Assembly (NCBI GenBank): GCA_030272585.1
Contig: BSYQ01000010.1
Span: 2,852,001 to 2,916,000, forward strand
From: Bryopsis sp. KO-2023
Lineage: Eukaryota; Chlorophyta; Ulvophyceae; Bryopsidales; Bryopsidaceae
Length of the DNA stretch: 64,000 bases
Direction: 5' to 3'
This document shows, in pieces, positions 54,477 to 64,000 of the stretch. A program made the position numbers and the translations under genes. How positions within the stretch are numbered: position 1 is the stretch's first letter; every line of letters starts with the position of its first letter. The notes beneath the pieces were generated by a model, which made no database searches, was not told the DNA's origin, and saw nothing but the letters and a program-made list of their open reading frames with translations.

Positions 54477-57400
54477 TCACGGCTCGTAGTTCAGCATGCT
54501 CCTCAACCATTTCTCCGCCTCTTTGATGTCCATATTCTTTCGCACGGCGTAGTCCTCCACCTGTTCTTGAGTGATCTTGCCCACTGCGAAGTACTGGCTG
54601 CACTTTCCTCCAAAGTACAAACCGCTGACACTGGCGGCTGGCAACATCGCCAAACTCTCGGTCAAAGAAATGCCCGTCTCCTTTTCGATGTCCATCAGAT
54701 CCCACATCGTCCATTTCTCGGTGTGATCGGGCTGGGATGGATACCCTGGCGCGGGACGAATTCCCTTTCGACACACCACCATAAAACCAACGTCAACTAA
54801 CCAGACAGTGCCAGACGGCCGGTTTGCGCCAATTCTCATTAACAACAGGAGCGTGCATAACAAAACACACCACTATCTTGATGAAGAACGACAGCACAGG
54901 TCATGCTCACCTGATATTTGACACGGAGAAGATCGTCCGTCGACAGGATCTCTTCTCGGGAGTATCCCCAGAAGTCCTTCCTGACCATTTCGTGGAGCTT
55001 TTCCGCAAAAGCTTCGGCCAATCTGTCCGCCAACGCCTCCGCCATGATGTAACTGTAGTCGTCATGGTTGGCCTTGTACTCCTCGATCAAGGTTTCGATT
55101 CCGAAACCGGCGCTGTTGGCGAACATCCCCAAGTAGTCCGCGACGCCTGAGCCCTTCGGAGCGATGAAGTCGGACAGAGAGAAATACGAGACGTCACCCT
55201 CCCGCTCCGCTTGCTGCCTCAGACCGAAAAACTTGCAGCGAACTTCCGTCCTGGATTCGTCTGTGTAGACCTCGATATCGTCCCCAACGGAGTTTGCGGG
55301 GAAGATCCCAATGATGCCGTGCATCTGAAGTTTCTTCTTTGCAACGAAATCCTACAAAAAAAAGCAAGCAAATGTGAGCGCGATCGTCGAAACAGGAAAT
55401 CTCCAAAAAAGGATTGGCGGCTGTTCAGCAAGCTCTCGCTGAAACTGTCCGAATAATGAATCTGTGTTGTGCGTCAGACCCACTCACGTTCAGCATCGTT
55501 TGTGCATCGGCGAAAAGCTTTTTGGCTTCCTCCCCTACAGTTTTGTCCTTGAAGATCTTGGGGTAACCTCTGTTGGGGTACCGACCTCTGAGCTGCCACA
55601 CCTGGAAGAACGGATTCCAATCGATGTAATCCAGCACGTCTTCCAGAGGAAAGTTCATCAGGGCCTTCGAACCCAGCATCTCAGGCGTGGGTGGCTTGTT
55701 TTCTTCGGCAGTCCAATCGACATCGAACATAGTTTTCCTGGCTTCTTTCAGTGTTAAATACCTGCGCGAAATACGACACCCGTTCAGAAACAATTTCTAT
55801 GCAGAGTCGGTCCAGAAACGCAGCACAGCAGCAATCATTGTTTGGAGCGCGGTTTTGCAGATCACTCACTTTCTATCCTCAAGGCCGGCATAGAATTCTT
55901 CTCTGATTTCGTTGTATTCCTCTCTGATGTGCTCAGCCAGTTCATCGTGTTTCACCTTGTCGACCAGAGACTGTGCGACAGGGACGCTCCTACTGGCATC
56001 CAAAACATGCATGGCCACCCCAGAATACACAGGGGCGATCTTGACGGCAGTGTGCATTTTGGACGTCGTCGCTCCTCCAACCAGCAAAGGCAGCTTCATC
56101 TTTCGCTCCTGCATTTTCGTCGCAACCGTCACCATCTCGTCCAGGGAGGGAGTGATCAAGCCACTCAAACCGATAATATCGGCCTTTTCTTCCTCAGCGG
56201 CATCCAGAATCTTTTCCCAAGGGGTCATGACGCCCATGTCGATAACTTTGAAGTTGTTGCACCCCAACACCACCGAGACGATGTTTTTCCCGATATCGTG
56301 AACGTCGCCCTTGACTGTTGCGATGACAATCACTCCGGCGTTGGATGCGCCGGTACCTCCCGATCTCAATTTCTCCTCCTCAATGAAGGGCAGCAAATGG
56401 GCGACAGCTTTTTTCATAACCCGAGCAGACTTGATAACCTGAGGTAGAAACATCTCGCCAGCCCCAAACTTATCCCCCACAATGTTCATGCCGTCCATCA
56501 GCGGTCCCTCGATCACTTGCAGGGCGCTCTCGTACAATCCACTAGACCTGGCCTCCTCGGTGTCACCCACCACAAATTCATCAATTCCTTTCACCAACGC
56601 ATGAGCCAGGCGATCTGTAACGAGGGAGTCTCTCCACGAGGATTTCTTTTGGCCCCCTGCAGCTGGCCCGGCTTCCATTCCCTTCATCCTCACATCTGTC
56701 GGCTTACACTTGGGGTCCAGATAGGTCGCATACTGCAACATTCGCTCGGTGGCATTATCGCACCGGTTCAACAGGACATCTTCGATGTATTCCAAGAGCA
56801 CCTTGTCGATTTTCTCATACTTATCGTTTTTCACTTGAATAGTGTTGACGATCCCCATGTCCATTCCAGCTTTGCATGCATGATGGAGAAACGCGCTGTG
56901 GAATCCTCTCCTCACAGGTTCATTCCCACGGAAAGAGAACGCGATGTTGGAAACACCCCCACTGATTTTACATCCTGGACACACCCTCTTGATCTCCCGG
57001 GTGGCCCGGATGAAATCCACAGCATAGTTGTTGTGCTCGGATAGACCAGTCCCCACTGTCAGAATATTGGGGTCAAAAACAATATCTTGGGGATCGAATC
57101 CGACATCCTCCACCAGAATTTTGTATGCCCGTTGACAGATGCGAACCTTGTCGGCATATCCAGCAGCTTGACCCTCCTCATCGAAAGCCATCACCACCAC
57201 AGCCGCCCCGTGTTTTTTCACGATATTTGCATGCTCCCGGAATTTCTCTTCTCCCTCCTTCAGTGAGATGGAATTGACAATGCATTTTCCCTGACTGCAT
57301 TTCAGCCCATTCTCCACAATGAAAAACTTGGAGGAATCAACCATGAAAGGTATCCTGCTCGTCTCAGGATCGCTCACCAACAGATTCACAAACTTGGTCA

Positions 57401-60400
57401 TGGCAGCACCACCATCGATCAATCCATCATCCATGTTGATGTCAAGAATGTCAGTCCCCTGCTGAACCTGCTTCAGAGCTATGGAATGCGCCTTGTCGTA
57501 GTCCCCATCCACAATAGCCTTCTTGTACATGATGGATCCCGCCACATTGCACCTTTCACCAACATTCAAAAAGGTTTTGCGCATGTTGGTCTCATCAGGG
57601 TAATAGTTCAACGGCTCCAGCCCGCTCAGCTTCATGACATCGTCAATCTCGTGTGTTTCCCTGGGCTCATATTCCTTGCTCATCTTTACCACTGCTGCTA
57701 TATGGTCGGGTGTGGATCCACAGCATCCACCCAAAGCATTCACAATGCGATCTTCACAGAACGGCTGCAACTCGTCAGCCATTTCTTGGGGCTTTTGATC
57801 ATATCCCCCCATGGCATTTGGCAATCCAGCATTTGGATAAGCAAACACGTAGCAATCACTGCACTTGCCCAGGTTCTCCACATATGGTTTCATGTCTGTC
57901 GCTCCGAGGGCACAGTTCAATCCAATCGCAAAAGGTTTTGCGTGTCGCACGCTGTTCCAGAATGCCTCATTTGTCTGACCACTCAGGGTTCTGCCAGACA
58001 TATCAACGATGGTGCCACTGATCATAACTGGGATTCGGATGCCCTTATCCTCGAAAAATTTCTCCAGGGCAAAAATGGCGGCTTTGGAATTCTGGGTGTC
58101 GAAAATGGTCTCCACCAGGAACAAATCCACTCCTCCATCATAGAGACCAATGCATTGGTCATAGTAAGCATCTACAACCTCATCGTAAGTGATTCCCCGA
58201 AACGCAGGGTTTTCCACAGATGGTGAGACTGACAAAGTCTTGTTGGTAGGCCCAATGGCTCCTGCCACAAATTTGTCCTCTCCAGGATGCTCCTTCATGT
58301 AAGCCGCAGTGCATTTCTTGGCAAGTTCAGCAGCAGTTTTGTTGATCAGATAAACCTCCTCCTTGGCTTCCAGAGCATAATCGGCTTGAGAAATGGAGGT
58401 GCCATTGAAAGTGTTGGTCTCCAGGATGTCTGCCCCCGCCTCCAAATATGCAGTGTGGATTTCAGCAATCACGTCAGGCCTGGTAATCACCAACAGATCA
58501 TTGTTTCCTTGGAGCTCACTGCCGTGGTTCTTGTACCGTTCTCCCCTGAAGTCTGCTTCCTTAAGCTTGTATTGCTGGATGGCTGTGCCCATTGCACCAT
58601 CAATGTATGCAATCCTTTTGGAAAAAATGGCCTCCAGCTTATCGAACGCGTCAGTCCGTCGCAAAGGATCTACATATGGTTTGTATTCTGGAACAGGTGG
58701 GAGGTTCGCGTCTGGAGCAAGGGTATCCACATCGGCAGGCACAGGGTTCTCCCTTGGCGGAACTTCGATCTGCACTTGGCCTCCAAGTTTAATAACCGCA
58801 GTGGGCTTGCTCTTCGGATCGATGGTGGCTGCATACTCCAGCAGCCTCTCGGTGGCATTGGTGCATCTATTCAGGAGCACATCTTCGATGAAGGTGAGCA
58901 ACTCCTTGTCAAGCTTCTCATAGGCATCATTCTTGACCTAAGGGACACAGCCATTGGTTTCTCACTCCAGGGATGCTGAAGTCGCCTATTCAACTTCAGA
59001 ATAAGGTGAAACCGATGTTCTAGGGCTGTGACTCTTTGCCAGATCCTTGTTCCATGGAACGTATCGTAGTGCGCTTAATGATATATCGCAAAAAATAAAG
59101 TATGATTTATGGTATTTCCTTCGAAATTTTACGTCTTATTATATTTTATTACAGTAAAAAATATTTTGAGGAGTGTCATTTATTTTGTGAATATTTTGAG
59201 TGATTTTGTTCTGAAAATAACGTCGGCATTTTCGAAAAATATTTATGATTGTGCGACCTTTCTTCCGCGTTTTATTTCTTGGGGTATTTTTTTAAAGCCT
59301 GGATGCAATGAGTCCAGTGAGGTGAGCAACCAGCTGTCGCATGGAAGCTCAAAACCGCCATCCCTTCCAAATGCCACCTTAATTAAGAAAAATCCCCTCT
59401 CTTGTGCCACCACTTTTTAGGACTTGCGAAAATATTCTGGATCATTCGACCTTATCTCTGGTGTGGTCTTTTTTCCAGCCCCCCCCCCCCACAGCATTTC
59501 GAAACTGTGCAACAGTCCCAGGTAGATTTTCGGTTTATGCCTGTTACTCCGACCCTGTTACTCCGACTTCGTCCATGTCTGACATCGGGATAGCTCCCAT
59601 GTCTGACAGTCGGCGCGCGCCGGTCTACCTCGCGGTCGCTCGACGCGCGCCGGTTCGCGCCGGTCTACCCCGCGCTTGTTTAGCCCACTCGCTTGGCGCG
59701 CGCCGGTCGCGCTAACCCTAAACCCTAAACCCAACCCCCCCTTTTTTTTCGGTCTGACATACAGAGTCGGAGTAACAGGGGTCGGAGTTATGGGGGTACA
59801 CCAGATTTTCATTGAATCAACAGTATGTCATACATAAACTGTTGAGGACTTTGGTACTTTGATCCGCCACAGTGTTCCCAATCTATCACTGCCCCCTTTT
59901 TTTTCCCTTTTTTATCTCATCCTTTTTCAGCTGCTATGGTCAGCTCTTCAACACAGATGGTTTGAATCCATCCTTTTTTTTTCATTCTTTGATGCCAGCG
60001 GAAGGCTGGATCAAACACTAAAAAAGGTATCACGTATAAATCCTCCATAGTGAAAAAAAAGAGAGAATTGGGTGTTTTGGGAGAGCGATTAGGTAGATGT
60101 ATCAATCCATCTGTTCACTCCTACCAACATCAACACCCCAATCATGTGGAAAAGATTGTCAGCAGTCGAGCTTACTTTTGGTTGGACTACGGATTTTCTT
60201 TTTTTATTTAGTTTCTCCTGCTCATAATGCATGAAGATTGTTAGCATTCTAAAAGGCCCACCTGAATAGTGTTGACGATCCCCATGTCCATTCCCGCCTT
60301 GCATGCGTAATGTAGAAAAGCGCTGTGGAATCCTCTCCTCACAGGTTCATTTCCACGGAACGAGAACGCAATGTTGGAAACTCCTCCACTGATTTTACAC

Positions 60401-63400
60401 CCTGGGCACACCCTCTTGATCTCCCGGGTGGCCCGGATGAAATCCACAGCATAGTTGTTATGCTCGGATAGACCAGTCCCCACTGTCAAAATATTGGGGT
60501 CGAACACTACATCTTGGGGATCGAATCCGACATCCTCCACCAGAATTTTGTATGCTCGTTGGCATATGCGAACCTTGTCGGCATATCCAGCGGCTTGACC
60601 CTCCTCATCGAAAGCCATTACCACCACAGCCGCCCCGTGTTTTTTCACGATGTTTGCATGCTCCCGGAATTTCTCTTCCCCTTCTTTCAGTGAGATGGAA
60701 TTGACGATGCACTTTCCTTGACTGCACTTCAGCCCGTTCTCCACGATGAAGAATTTGGAGGAATCAACCATGAAAGGTATCCTGCTCGTTTCAGGATCGC
60801 TCACCAACAGATTCACAAATTTGGTCATGGCAGCACCCCCGTCGATCAACCCATCGTCCATGTTTATATCCAAGATATCCGCCCCTTGTTGAACCTGCTT
60901 CAGAGCTATGGAATGTGCCTTGTCGTAGTCGCCATCCACAATGGCTTTTTTGTACATGATGGATCCAGCAACATTGCACCTTTCCCCAACATTCAAAAAG
61001 GTTTTCCGCATGTTCGTTTCATCAGGATAGTAGTTCAATGGCTCCAGGCCACTCAGCTTCATGACATTGTCAATCTCGTGTGTTTCCCTGGGCTCATATT
61101 CCTTGCTCATTTTCACCACTGCTGCTATGTGGTCGGGTGTGGATCCACAGCAACCACCCAAAGCATTCACAATGCGATCTTCACAGAACGGCTGCAACTC
61201 ATCGGCCATTTCTTGAGGCTTCTGGTCATATCCCCCCATGGCATTCGGCAATCCAGCATTCGGATAAGCAAACACATAACAATCACTGCACTTGCCCAGG
61301 TTCTCCACATATGGTTTCATGTCTGTTGCTCCAAGGGCGCAGTTCAATCCGATGGCAAAAGGTTTTGCATGTCGAACACTGTTCCAGAATGCCTCATTCG
61401 TCTGACCACTCAGGGTTCTCCCAGACATATCAACGATAGTACCACTGATCATCACAGGGATTCTGATGCCCTTATCCTCGAAAAATTTCTCCAGGGCAAA
61501 AATGGCGGCTTTGGAATTCTGTGTGTCGAAAATGGTCTCCACCAAGAACAAGTCCACCCCTCCATCGTACAAACCGATGCACTGATCATAGTAAGCATCT
61601 ACAACCTCATCGTATGTGATACCCCGAAACGCAGGGTTTTCAACAGATGGTGAGACTGACAGAGTCTTGTTGGTAGGCCCAATGGCTCCAGCCACAAATT
61701 TGTCTTCTCCAGGATGATCCTTCATGTAAGCTGCAGTACATTTCTTGGCAAGTTCAGCAGCGGTTTTGTTGATCAGGTACACCTCCTCCTTGGCTTCCAG
61801 AGCATAGTCTGCCTGAGAGATGGATGTGCCATTGAACGTGTTTGTCTCCAGGATATCCGCCCCAGCCTCCAAATATGCCGTGTGGATTTCAGCGATCACG
61901 TCAGGCCTGGTAATCACCAACAGATCATTGTTTCCTTGCAGCTCACTGCCGTGATTCTTGTACCGCTCCCCCCTGAAGTCTGCTTCCTTCAGCTTGTATT
62001 GCTGGATGGCTGTGCCCATAGCACCATCAATATAGGCGATTCTCTTGGAGAAGATCGCCTCCAGCTTGTCGAACGTATCTGTCCGTCGCAAAGGATCCAC
62101 ATATGGTTTGTATTCTGGGACAGGAGGCAGATTTTCCTCTGGAGCGAGGGTATCCACATTGTCAGGAACAGGGTTCTCTCTCGGTGGGATCTTGACCTGC
62201 CCCTGGCCGCCAAGTTTGACAACCGCAGTAGGCTTGCTCTTTGGATCAATGGTGGCGGCATACTCCAAGAGCCTTTCGGTTCCATTTTCACATCGGTTCA
62301 GAAGCACATCTTCAATGAAAGTGAGCAACTCCTTGTCAAGCTTCTCATAGGCATCATTCTTGACCTAAGGGACACAACCACTGGTTTATTACTTTGGAGG
62401 AATCACGGCGATGGTTTTTTTTCAGTCCATAAATAAATGGCATCAGTTCAGTTCAGATTGTCTGATTCAGCGTTTTCTGTCAGCTAGGTATTGGGCTTTT
62501 GTTGTCGTACGGATGGTATCAGTATATTGTTAAACTGATAGGATGATGCAGGCGCTCCACGGAACAATGAACTCTACTCATCTCAGCTCACACATGGAAT
62601 CATCATGAATCACATGACCAATGGTTTTACAACTGCATCGTTCGTTGTGGGGCCCTCGTCAAATTCAGGCGTGTCTCTATGTTTGACCCTTGTTCACAGA
62701 GAGAGAGAGAGAGAGAGTAGAGGCCAGCTTTCGGAGCACAAATACAGTCTGGAAGGTAGTATTATTTCAACCTACCTTCCCTGAATTTTACACGAAAAAA
62801 AAAAAAGGTACTCTGAAACTGTACAGTTACACCACTATGCAGGCCATCGGATACTGTGACAGGCTGTTCGCTGAGCAAAACTGCCAGGAGCAGAAGTTTT
62901 ACCCAGAGGAGCCCACTGCTTACTGATTCCGGACTTCGGCTAATAAGTGTGTGGATGAACGGCCAATGAAATGAAAAGAGAATACGAAACGATAGAATTT
63001 TTTTGTGTTTGGACATTAGCTGGTGGCGATTGGTGGCTGCGTTTCTTACACCACCCTTTTCACCTGCGATGAAGAAAAATCTGGTCCTCAAGTCATTTTA
63101 TACAGAATGATTCGAACGCGTGCGCGTATGGGCAGAGCAAGTGTCAGACATCGCATCGTAAATCGATTGGTTATTAAGCCTGAAAAGTCAACCCCACCCC
63201 ATTCAGGGTTATTGAGCCGTGTCTACTGGAGCAACCAATGTCCCAGGCAGACTTTCATTGAAACGACAGTTTCTCATACACGAGATGTCGAGCACTTTGG
63301 TATTTTGATCCCCCACTGTGCTCCTAATCTTTCACTGCCTTTGTTGTTCCTCTCCGAAAGAAATAAAAACAAAAAAATGACAAATTCTGCACAGTCCAAC

Positions 63401-64000
63401 AAAACGTGAGCTTGCATGCTGACGATCTTCATACATGCTTGGGTTCTTATGCTTGGGTTCTTGACCTTGGTAGGAAAAACAAGTGAACAGATGGATTAGT
63501 ATCACCCTACGTTACCCCCAAATATTTGGATTGAATCGTACCTGAACAGTGTTTACAATCCCCATGTCCATTCCCGCCTTGCATGCGTAATGGAGAAAAG
63601 CGCTGTGGAATCCTCTCCTCACAGGTTCATTTCCACGGAATGAAAAAGCAATGTTGGAAACTCCTCCACTGATCTTACACCCTGGGCAAACCCTCTTGAT
63701 CTCCCGGGTGGCTCGAATAAAGTCCACAGCATAGTTGTTGTGCTCGGATAGACCAGTCCCCACTGTTAAAATATTGGGGTCGAACACTACATCTTGGGGA
63801 TCGAATCCAACATCCTCCACCAGAATCTTGTATGCTCGTTGACAGATGCGAACCTTGTCGGCATATCCAGCGGCTTGACCCTCCTCATCGAAGGCCATCA
63901 CCACCACAGCCGCTCCATGTCGTTTCACGATATTTGCATGCTCTCGGAATTTCTCTTCTCCCTCCTTCAGTGAGATAGAATTGACAATGCATTTTCCCTG
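54477..64000 (-). CDS. metH: cobalamin-dependent methionine synthase with repeated substrate modules (5' end outside window)
   Basis: Transfers methyl from methyl-tetrahydrofolate to homocysteine through B12. Minus-strand exons 64000-63542 (partial), 62364-60262, 58937-55870, 55761-55488, 55351-54911 and 54764-54477 (TGA) are in phase. C-terminal parts are ordinary: cap helices ([20 protein letters not shown]), B12 domain with cobalt-ligand motif DVHDIG (58937-55870 exon), and reactivation domain with [15 protein letters not shown]. Upstream, the homocysteine domain (zinc ligands in GLNCALG and [17 protein letters not shown]) and folate domain ([35 protein letters not shown]) occur in at least three tandem modules, each module preceded by the [20 protein letters not shown] linker. 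Both complete modules are exactly 701 codons. E. coli MetH (1227 residues) has one of each domain. All catalytic motifs look intact in each copy. B12 must come from outside or from bacteria. Confidence 0.93.
56835..58937 (-). repeat. metH module 3, fused in one exon to the cap and B12 domains
   Basis: Same length and order as module 2. Its end (NTIQ then [20 protein letters not shown]) shows the original continuation into the cap domain, with CAA at the place where modules 1 and 2 have CAG followed by an intron. Confidence 0.9.
59540..59793. mobile_element. MITE-like inverted-repeat element in a metH intron
   Basis: The left end (CCTGTTACTCCGACCCTGTT and on) is the reverse complement of the right end at about 59766-59793. 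A second matching block just inside (TGTCTGAC near 59577; TCTGACAT near 59752) suggests arms of roughly 45 bp. The 250-bp element holds GCGCGCCGG repeats and a short telomere-like array. No ORF. Confidence 0.6.
59713..59734. repeat. interstitial plant-type telomere motif
   Basis: About three units of CCCTAAA in tandem (TAACCCTAAACCCTAAACCC), inside the inverted-repeat element. It is too short to be a chromosome end here. Confidence 0.7.
59808..59893. repeat. intron segment homologous to 63254-63339
   Basis: About 86 bp (TTCATTGAATCAACAGTATG and on) matches the intron before module 2 at 63254-63339 with scattered differences. This shows the intron was duplicated together with the metH module. 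The two introns also share their 3' ends beside the exon starts 58937 and 62364. Confidence 0.7.
60262..62364 (-). repeat. metH module 2: linker + homocysteine domain + folate domain exon
   Basis: A single 2103-nt phase-0 exon. It is paralogous to 58937-56835 in the next exon (also 2103 nt) and to the partial exon 63542-64000. By my count it differs from module 3 at about 17 of 701 residues, 12 of them in the first 90-residue linker, while silent differences are many. Confidence 0.9.
63542..64000 (-). repeat. metH module 1, partial (continues beyond window)
   Basis: The last 153 codons of a module. It ends in [11 protein letters not shown] and a GTACGA donor, matching the end of module 2. 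It runs off the window edge in frame. Confidence 0.88.

What the first reader, a model, noticed from the sequence alone, without database searches (positions are those of the whole stretch)
54477..64000. Methionine synthase with at least three tandem homocysteine-plus-folate modules feeding one B12 domain
Seen: in the metH gene, two complete modules of exactly 2103 nt (62364-60262 and 58937-56835) and the end of a third (63542-64000) lie in tandem, all phase 0, with splice sites that join them in frame. Each keeps the zinc-binding and pterin motifs. Established: known MetH proteins carry one homocysteine domain, one folate domain, one B12 domain and one reactivation domain. Inference: the gene encodes either a giant enzyme with several substrate modules sharing one B12 and one reactivation domain, or several isoforms by cassette-exon splicing, since every module exon can be skipped without a frame break. 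About 17 amino-acid differences against many silent ones imply selection on each copy.
Basis: partly seen in the sequence, partly recalled or inferred. Interest (0 to 1): 0.92.

Follow-up and report, generated by a model that had tools for sequence, protein, structure and literature searches.

The report
Four-headed vitamin B12 methionine synthase
A green alga has a giant methionine-making enzyme with four copies of its substrate-binding half attached to one vitamin B12 unit, and relatives with two to four copies occur in other algae, which may be a way to get more work out of a scarce vitamin.

Summary
The metH gene (minus strand) encodes four Hcy+Fol modules, then one Cap-B12 and one reactivation domain: 3396 aa. 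Modules 1 and 2 are fused in one intron-free exon beyond the window edge, so a multi-module protein does not depend on splicing. The only Cap match and all reactivation-domain matches in the genome are in this gene. Module pairs differ at 143-171 of 1869 nt but only 5-10 aa (dN/dS 0.010-0.024).

The architecture is not unique. Of 240 database proteins scanned, 146 have at least two Hcy domains; the named ones include green algae, stramenopiles and dinoflagellates. In 91 of 98 intact multi-module proteins the modules group by protein, a sign of concerted evolution. A marker helix separates first from later modules in most green proteins, including two streptophytes, so the green tandem looks ancient. 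All 272 intact modules keep three zinc cysteines.

Most likely: several Hcy:Fol bodies share one scarce cobalamin (B12-sparing; inferred, not shown). Prior print found: one aside, on Phaeodactylum (PMC4523565). Only module 3 is a frame-neutral cassette. New variant of MetH.

The parts
63542..64000 (-). 3' end of module 2; the exon continues beyond the window to C10:2919558 and holds modules 1 and 2 without an intron (4017 nt)
   Evidence: open frame; PF02574 and PF00809 twice each in this exon
62365..63541 (-). GT-AG intron between modules 2 and 3 (1177 nt)
   Evidence: partly similar to the next intron (81.5% over 92 nt)
60262..62364 (-). module 3 exon: folate-exit helix/linker + Hcy + Fol, 2103 nt, phase 0-0
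58938..60261 (-). GT-AG intron between modules 3 and 4 (1324 nt)
59532..59802 (.). short interspersed repeat with inverted terminal arms inside that intron
   Evidence: 59 genomic matches including itself, many partial; a lower bound
56835..58937 (-). module 4 (701 aa: linker + Hcy + Fol), first part of the 3068-nt exon 55870-58937
55870..56834 (-). rest of that exon: folate-exit helix, Cap (PF02607) and cobalamin domain (PF02310, DVHDIG); exon ends in phase 2
55488..55761 (-). exon, start of the reactivation domain (PF02965)
54911..55351 (-). exon, middle of the reactivation domain
54477..54764 (-). last exon, end of the reactivation domain (RPAPGYP motif) and stop

Best explanation
The gene encodes one giant cobalamin-dependent methionine synthase of 3396 aa. 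Four complete Hcy:Fol bodies, each able in principle to bind zinc, homocysteine and methyl-folate, are strung on linkers in front of one Cap-cobalamin unit and one reactivation domain. In known MetH the Hcy:Fol pair moves as a rigid body and the cobalamin domain visits it, so the duplicated piece is the natural substrate body, cut in the mobile Fol:Cap linker. The likely mode of work is that one cobalamin is served by several loaded substrate bodies in the same chain, or in a neighbouring chain, so that more methyl transfers are made per molecule of scarce B12. Shown: the gene anatomy, the constraint on each module, and the multi-module architecture in other algae. Inferred: that all modules react with the one cobalamin, and that B12-sparing is the reason the array is kept (about 0.4).
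For: One exon encodes M1+M2. There is one Cap match and one set of reactivation exons in the genome, all in this gene. Pairwise dN/dS is 0.010-0.024 at dS 0.30-0.38 (YN00). 272 of 272 intact modules keep three zinc cysteines. 98 intact proteins, counting this one, have 2-4 modules, and 97 of 97 others have one Cap, one B12 and one Act. In 91 of 98 the modules group by protein. The first/later marker helix runs across green lineages: first R 35 of 46 (C 9, S 1, D 1); middle C 13 of 13; last C 44 of 46. In the window's gene silent differences are 22-25% in the cores against 45-63% in the exit linkers for five of six pairs, so the cores look homogenised inside an old array. The inter-module linker is predicted disordered in a relative's model (residues 268-339, pLDDT about 28-41; the model as a whole is weak, mean 64). 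The rigid Hcy:Fol body and mobile Fol:Cap linker are in PMC10567725 (passages). Two-module proteins named as transcript ORFs exist: P0090, P0119 and P0246.
Against: No RNA or protein from this organism was available. Whether M1-M3 can reach the cobalamin is untested; M1 lies about 2000 residues from it. Module number varies from 1 to 4 among relatives (one in Chlorella variabilis, two in C. vulgaris, three in C. sorokiniana), so extra modules are not indispensable. The marker helix fails in 11 of 46 first positions, and for M2 against M3 the exit linkers are no more diverged than the cores (28% against 23%, p 0.37). The genome also has a B12-independent synthase match (PF01717), which weakens a strict need to spare B12.
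Confidence: 0.7

Rival explanations
1. The module array is a tolerated coding repeat that grows and shrinks by unequal crossing-over and is kept uniform by gene conversion; only the last module works with the cobalamin.
For: Copy number 1-4 among relatives; homogenised cores.
Against: dN/dS 0.010-0.024 in each pair since the last homogenisation; no loss of a zinc cysteine among 272 modules; position marker retained in most green proteins.
Confidence: 0.2
2. Extra modules act apart from the tethered cobalamin: as a reservoir for homocysteine and methyl-folate, or on free methylcobalamin.
For: Modules are complete and the linkers are long.
Against: No direct evidence for it; nothing in the calls separates it from the main reading.
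Confidence: 0.15
3. Cassette splicing makes single-module isoforms from one gene.
For: The M3 exon is 2103 nt, phase 0-0. M1 alone has an in-frame GT-AG pair, called as a 105-nt intron in the database model, and the Ostreobium model P0007 omits the matching stretch of its first module.
Against: M1+M2 share one exon. The M4 exon ends in phase 2 and carries Cap and B12. Multi-module proteins named as transcript ORFs exist in other algae.
Confidence: 0.1
4. Assembly or haplotype artefact.
For: Near-identical repeats are a classic source of error; many listed proteins, mostly from unnamed metagenome sources, have 100% identical modules.
Against: Copies here differ at 7.7-9.1% of sites, mostly silent; the introns differ and one carries a repeat element; other genomes and transcript sets show the same layout.
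Confidence: 0.02

Closest known systems
Cobalamin-dependent methionine synthase MetH/MTR (TIGR02082, PRK09490; solved chains 4ccz, 9ssp, 8ssc, 8g3h; that the first two are human and 8g3h thermophilic is recalled)
   Same: Same Hcy, Fol, Cap, Cob and Act domains in the same order; the M4-to-end part is a complete ordinary MetH.
   Different: Three further complete Hcy:Fol bodies precede it; still one Cap, Cob and Act.
Phaeodactylum tricornutum long MetH (Phatr2 23399; PMC4523565, passages and section 11)
   Same: Described there as a probable doubling of the MetH and pterin-binding domain, still to be verified by experiment.
   Different: One species, two copies, mentioned in passing in that section; no function proposed there.
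Algal proteins in databases, e.g. Haematococcus P0004 (4 modules), Chlorella sorokiniana P0014 and Volvox P0005 (3), Nitzschia P0082 and Hondaea P0083 (2), Prorocentrum P0065 (3, partial record)
   Same: Same (Hcy-Fol)n layout before a single Cap-B12.
   Different: Fewer modules in most; different linkers in stramenopiles and dinoflagellates.

Membership tests
MetH (TIGR02082 / PRK09490) | whole-protein score over the curated cut-off | tested here: met
   P0002: 4186 bits against a cut-off of 1010.85, and 4652 against 1497
MetH (TIGR02082 / PRK09490) | three zinc cysteines in each Hcy domain (their role is recalled) | tested here: met
   GLNCALG and GGCCG four times each; 272 of 272 intact modules
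MetH (TIGR02082 / PRK09490) | pterin-binding folate domain | tested here: met
   PF00809 in all four modules
MetH (TIGR02082 / PRK09490) | Cap and cobalamin domain with DxHxxG (motif recalled) | tested here: met
   PF02607, PF02310; DVHDIG once
MetH (TIGR02082 / PRK09490) | reactivation domain | tested here: met
   PF02965 in three pieces, one per exon
MetH (TIGR02082 / PRK09490) | one Hcy and one Fol domain (canonical layout, not in itself required by the models) | tested here: not met
   four of each
MetH (TIGR02082 / PRK09490) | B12-dependent methyl transfer to homocysteine | not testable with these tools
   no biochemistry possible

The most novel reading that the evidence does not exclude
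Algae of at least two, probably three, lineages have independently built and long maintained multi-headed methionine synthases: several catalytic Hcy:Fol bodies share one tethered cobalamin, as an architectural answer to scarce vitamin B12. Gene conversion keeps the heads alike, while the linkers and exit helices keep their positional identity.
Probability: 0.4. Interest if true: 0.87.

Novelty: new variant of a known kind. Interest (0 to 1): 0.77.

Why it matters
MetH is described as a one-of-each modular enzyme, and it is a main point where vitamin B12 limits algae. A layout with 2-4 substrate bodies per cobalamin, apparently also in the model alga Chlamydomonas reinhardtii (P0018, three Hcy domains in a gene model without a Cap match), changes how B12 demand per unit of methionine should be reckoned. 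It gives a direct test of how one cofactor can serve several active sites. It is also a case of within-gene concerted evolution over what looks like very long times. A family-level annotation does not show it, because the protein simply exceeds the MetH model's cut-off.

Tried and rejected
Considered and rejected: artefact (silent divergence, differing introns, relatives); pseudogene modules (dN/dS, zinc cysteines); M1+M2 as separate genes (one open exon).

Led nowhere or weakened: single-linkage clustering of linkers at E 1e-3 put green and stramenopile linkers in one group of 163. Counting direct hits gave 5715 green-green, 4412 other-other and only 44 green-other (best E 1.4e-5 over 25 aa), with the seven linkers of the dinoflagellate-like group (four proteins, one of them without an organism name besides the unnamed P0067) linked only to each other (42). 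Separate origins of the green and stramenopile arrays are therefore likely but not proven; one deep origin with diverged linkers remains open. In 'green' means at least 62% identity to M4, not taxonomy. In one search I assigned the green group by name or similarity rank; proteins whose exits the motif did not all find were left out of the counts (among them P0040, P0043 to P0054); all single-module proteins were put in its 'green single' row although several are not green, so I draw nothing from that row.

The length filter (candidates about 1825-5808 aa by the tool's stated factors) selects multi-module proteins, so the frequencies are not a census; 120 of its 150 hits were listed. Of the 240 proteins (the window's own model P0002 among them), 82 were dropped as partial or odd before the module counts. 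Of 60 intact single-module proteins, 4 carry an upstream folate-exit remnant and are probably cut multi-module proteins; short-read assemblies may also collapse identical modules. The module tree is one FastTree run; branch supports were not used in the count. The Fisher tests are not corrected for six pairs that share sequences.

Organism: not named by any search. The C-terminal half is nearest to Ostreobium quekettii among the proteins held (75.3%). From recall, the assembly size fits Bryopsis sp. KO-2023; three looks in the library did not confirm it.

Full report
What is there. The window is C10:2852001-2916000 of a 91.09-Mb, 28-contig assembly. The metH gene runs on the minus strand and crosses the right edge of the window. 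Beyond the edge I fetched the rest. The gene starts with ATG at C10:2919558 and has one 4017-nt exon encoding modules 1 and 2 with no intron between them. Then follow a 1177-nt intron, the 2103-nt module 3 exon, a 1324-nt intron, a 3068-nt exon with module 4, Cap and cobalamin domain, and three exons for the reactivation domain. By exon arithmetic the protein is 3396 aa: 1339 + 701 + 1356. The database gene model of the same contig, P0002, is 3361 aa; it lacks 35 residues of M1 that were called as a 105-nt intron.

Domains. Pfam finds PF02574 and PF00809 in every module, PF02607 and PF02310 once, in the M4 exon, and PF02965 in three exon pieces. In the whole genome the only Cap match is in this gene, as are all three reactivation-domain matches. 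The genome also has PF01717 matches on C5, suggesting a B12-independent synthase, and two partial PF02574 matches on C6. Compared with solved structures, the M4 exon aligns from residue 94 to its end with 9ssp, and residues 99-738 match 4ccz (that both are human MTR, and 4ccz its N-half, is recalled). The repeated unit is therefore the Hcy:Fol half, cut in the linker between Fol and Cap. A paper on a full-length thermophilic MetH describes Hcy and Fol as a rigid tandem body and the Fol:Cap linker as mobile (PMC10567725, passages).

Constraint. Over 1869 aligned nt the six module pairs differ at 143-171 sites but only 5-10 amino acids. YN00 dN/dS is 0.010-0.024 with dS 0.30-0.38; NG86 gives 0.011-0.020 with dS 0.44-0.55. 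The M3-M4 comparison gives 193 differences over 2103 nt.

Relatives. A search restricted to long proteins (150 hits, 120 listed), a search with the M4 exon (7996 hits, 120 listed) and a search with a protein close to a Prorocentrum one (348 hits, 120 listed) show that the layout occurs in many proteins. Of the 240 proteins, the window's own model included, 146 have at least two Hcy domains at more than 70% coverage, and only one, a 4119-aa Symbiodinium model, has two Cap domains. Intact proteins, counting the window's gene, are 60 with one module, 84 with two, 12 with three and 2 with four (158 kept, 82 dropped). Named cases are Haematococcus (4); Botryococcus, Volvox carteri, V. africanus, Chlamydomonas incerta and C. 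eustigma, Chlorella sorokiniana, Trebouxia, Myrmecia (3); Chlorella vulgaris, Pleodorina, Astrephomene, Pedinophyceae, Mesostigma, Chlorokybus (2); the stramenopiles Chrysophaeum (3), Nitzschia, Epithemia, Hondaea, Mucochytrium (2); and the dinoflagellates Prorocentrum (3, partial record), Polarella (3 plus a partial Hcy match), Symbiodinium natans, Effrenium (2) (the P0003, P0069 and P0070 names are read from JGI gene codes, which is recall, as is the grouping into phyla). Chlamydomonas reinhardtii P0018 has three Hcy domains in a model without a Cap match. Two-module proteins named as transcript ORFs include P0090, P0119, P0246 and P0248, the last without a Cap match. In a proteomics paper on C. 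reinhardtii the METH of the same locus was measured as protein (PMC11302038, passages), without a word on its layout in those passages.

Concerted evolution and age. In a tree of 272 modules, 91 of 98 multi-module proteins have modules that form a group of their own; in the 7 others the modules are at least 99.3% identical within the protein and one is identical to a module of another listed protein. Yet the array does not look new in each species. In the helix leaving each folate domain, green proteins carry R after the first module in 35 of 46 cases (C in 9, S 1, D 1), but C after middle modules in 13 of 13 and after the last in 44 of 46; Mesostigma and Chlorokybus, streptophytes, show the same pattern. 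Permuting first and last exits within 41 representative proteins (mostly green, five stramenopile-like) never reached the observed positional signal (0 of 2000; 0.631 against 0.610 identity), whereas for the cores same-position and cross-position identities are both 0.722 (the difference of 0.0003 is still above all 500 permutations), and within-protein core identity is 0.971. In the window's own gene, silent differences at conserved codons are 22-25% in the cores but 45-63% in the exit linkers for five of six pairs (Fisher p 1.9e-6 to 0.011); for M2 against M3 the linkers differ at only 28% (p 0.37), which suggests that one of these later modules is younger. Gene conversion of the cores inside an old array would explain this.

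Linkers. In the 24 proteins printed, chlorophyte linkers are about 109-115 aa and alignable from Chlorella to Volvox to this alga (117 and 193 aa in the two streptophytes); stramenopile ones are 153-163 aa; dinoflagellate-like ones 129-136 aa, with different sequences. Direct similarity between the green and the other group is rare (44 hits against 5715 and 4412 within groups), although single linkage still joins them. Two or three origins are therefore likely. A 12-sequence AlphaFold model of a Fol-Hcy-Fol fragment (P0209) shows about 70 low-confidence residues between modules (pLDDT about 28-41 at 268-339), but the model is weak overall (mean pLDDT 64, pTM 0.45).

How it probably works. Every intact module keeps the zinc cysteines (272 of 272), so each is probably a working substrate body. 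With one cobalamin per chain, several bodies loaded with homocysteine and methyl-folate could be visited in turn, raising output per cobalamin. [quoted passage not shown] This step is inference. Against it: relatives differ in copy number, down to one, and this genome has a B12-independent synthase match too.

What is in print. Searches led to one mention: a 2015 paper notes that P. tricornutum METH has an in-frame 'intron' encoding a second MetH and pterin domain, probably a doubling, to be verified (PMC4523565; passages, section 11). Of the other papers listed in those searches I opened only passages of PMC10567725 and PMC11302038; the rest I saw as titles and abstract beginnings. The library holds open-licence papers only, so other papers may say more.

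Verdict. It is a new variant of MetH, shared by many algae, whose reason is untested.

Noticed in passing
C10:2918064-2918168 (L008:4064-4168), in module 1: Only M1 has a GT at the SR codon pair (AGTAGG; AGC in M2-M4), and the database model removes 105 nt of folate-domain coding there. The Ostreobium model P0007 lacks the matching stretch of its first module. Could be an exitron that switches off the first folate domain, or an annotation error.
   Followed up: partly
window 59532-59802: A short element with inverted terminal arms and a GC-rich middle with TTTAGGG-like units lies in the second intron; 59 genomic matches including itself, many partial (a lower bound), the best other copy 99% identical.
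   Followed up: partly
C5:4133253-4134549: PF01717 matches: a B12-independent methionine synthase is probably present too.
   Followed up: no
C6:5956136-5958298: Two partial PF02574 matches, perhaps another homocysteine methyltransferase with introns; my attempt to scan it failed.
   Followed up: no
P0074 (Symbiodinium sp. CCMP2592, 4119 aa): A model with two runs of Hcy/Fol matches each followed by a Cap; perhaps fused neighbouring genes.
   Followed up: no
P0044-P0052 and, for example, P0169-P0171: Nearly identical proteins from unnamed sources with two (2144 aa) or one (1439 aa) module: copy-number variation within one organism or close kin, or collapse of identical repeats in assembly.
   Followed up: no
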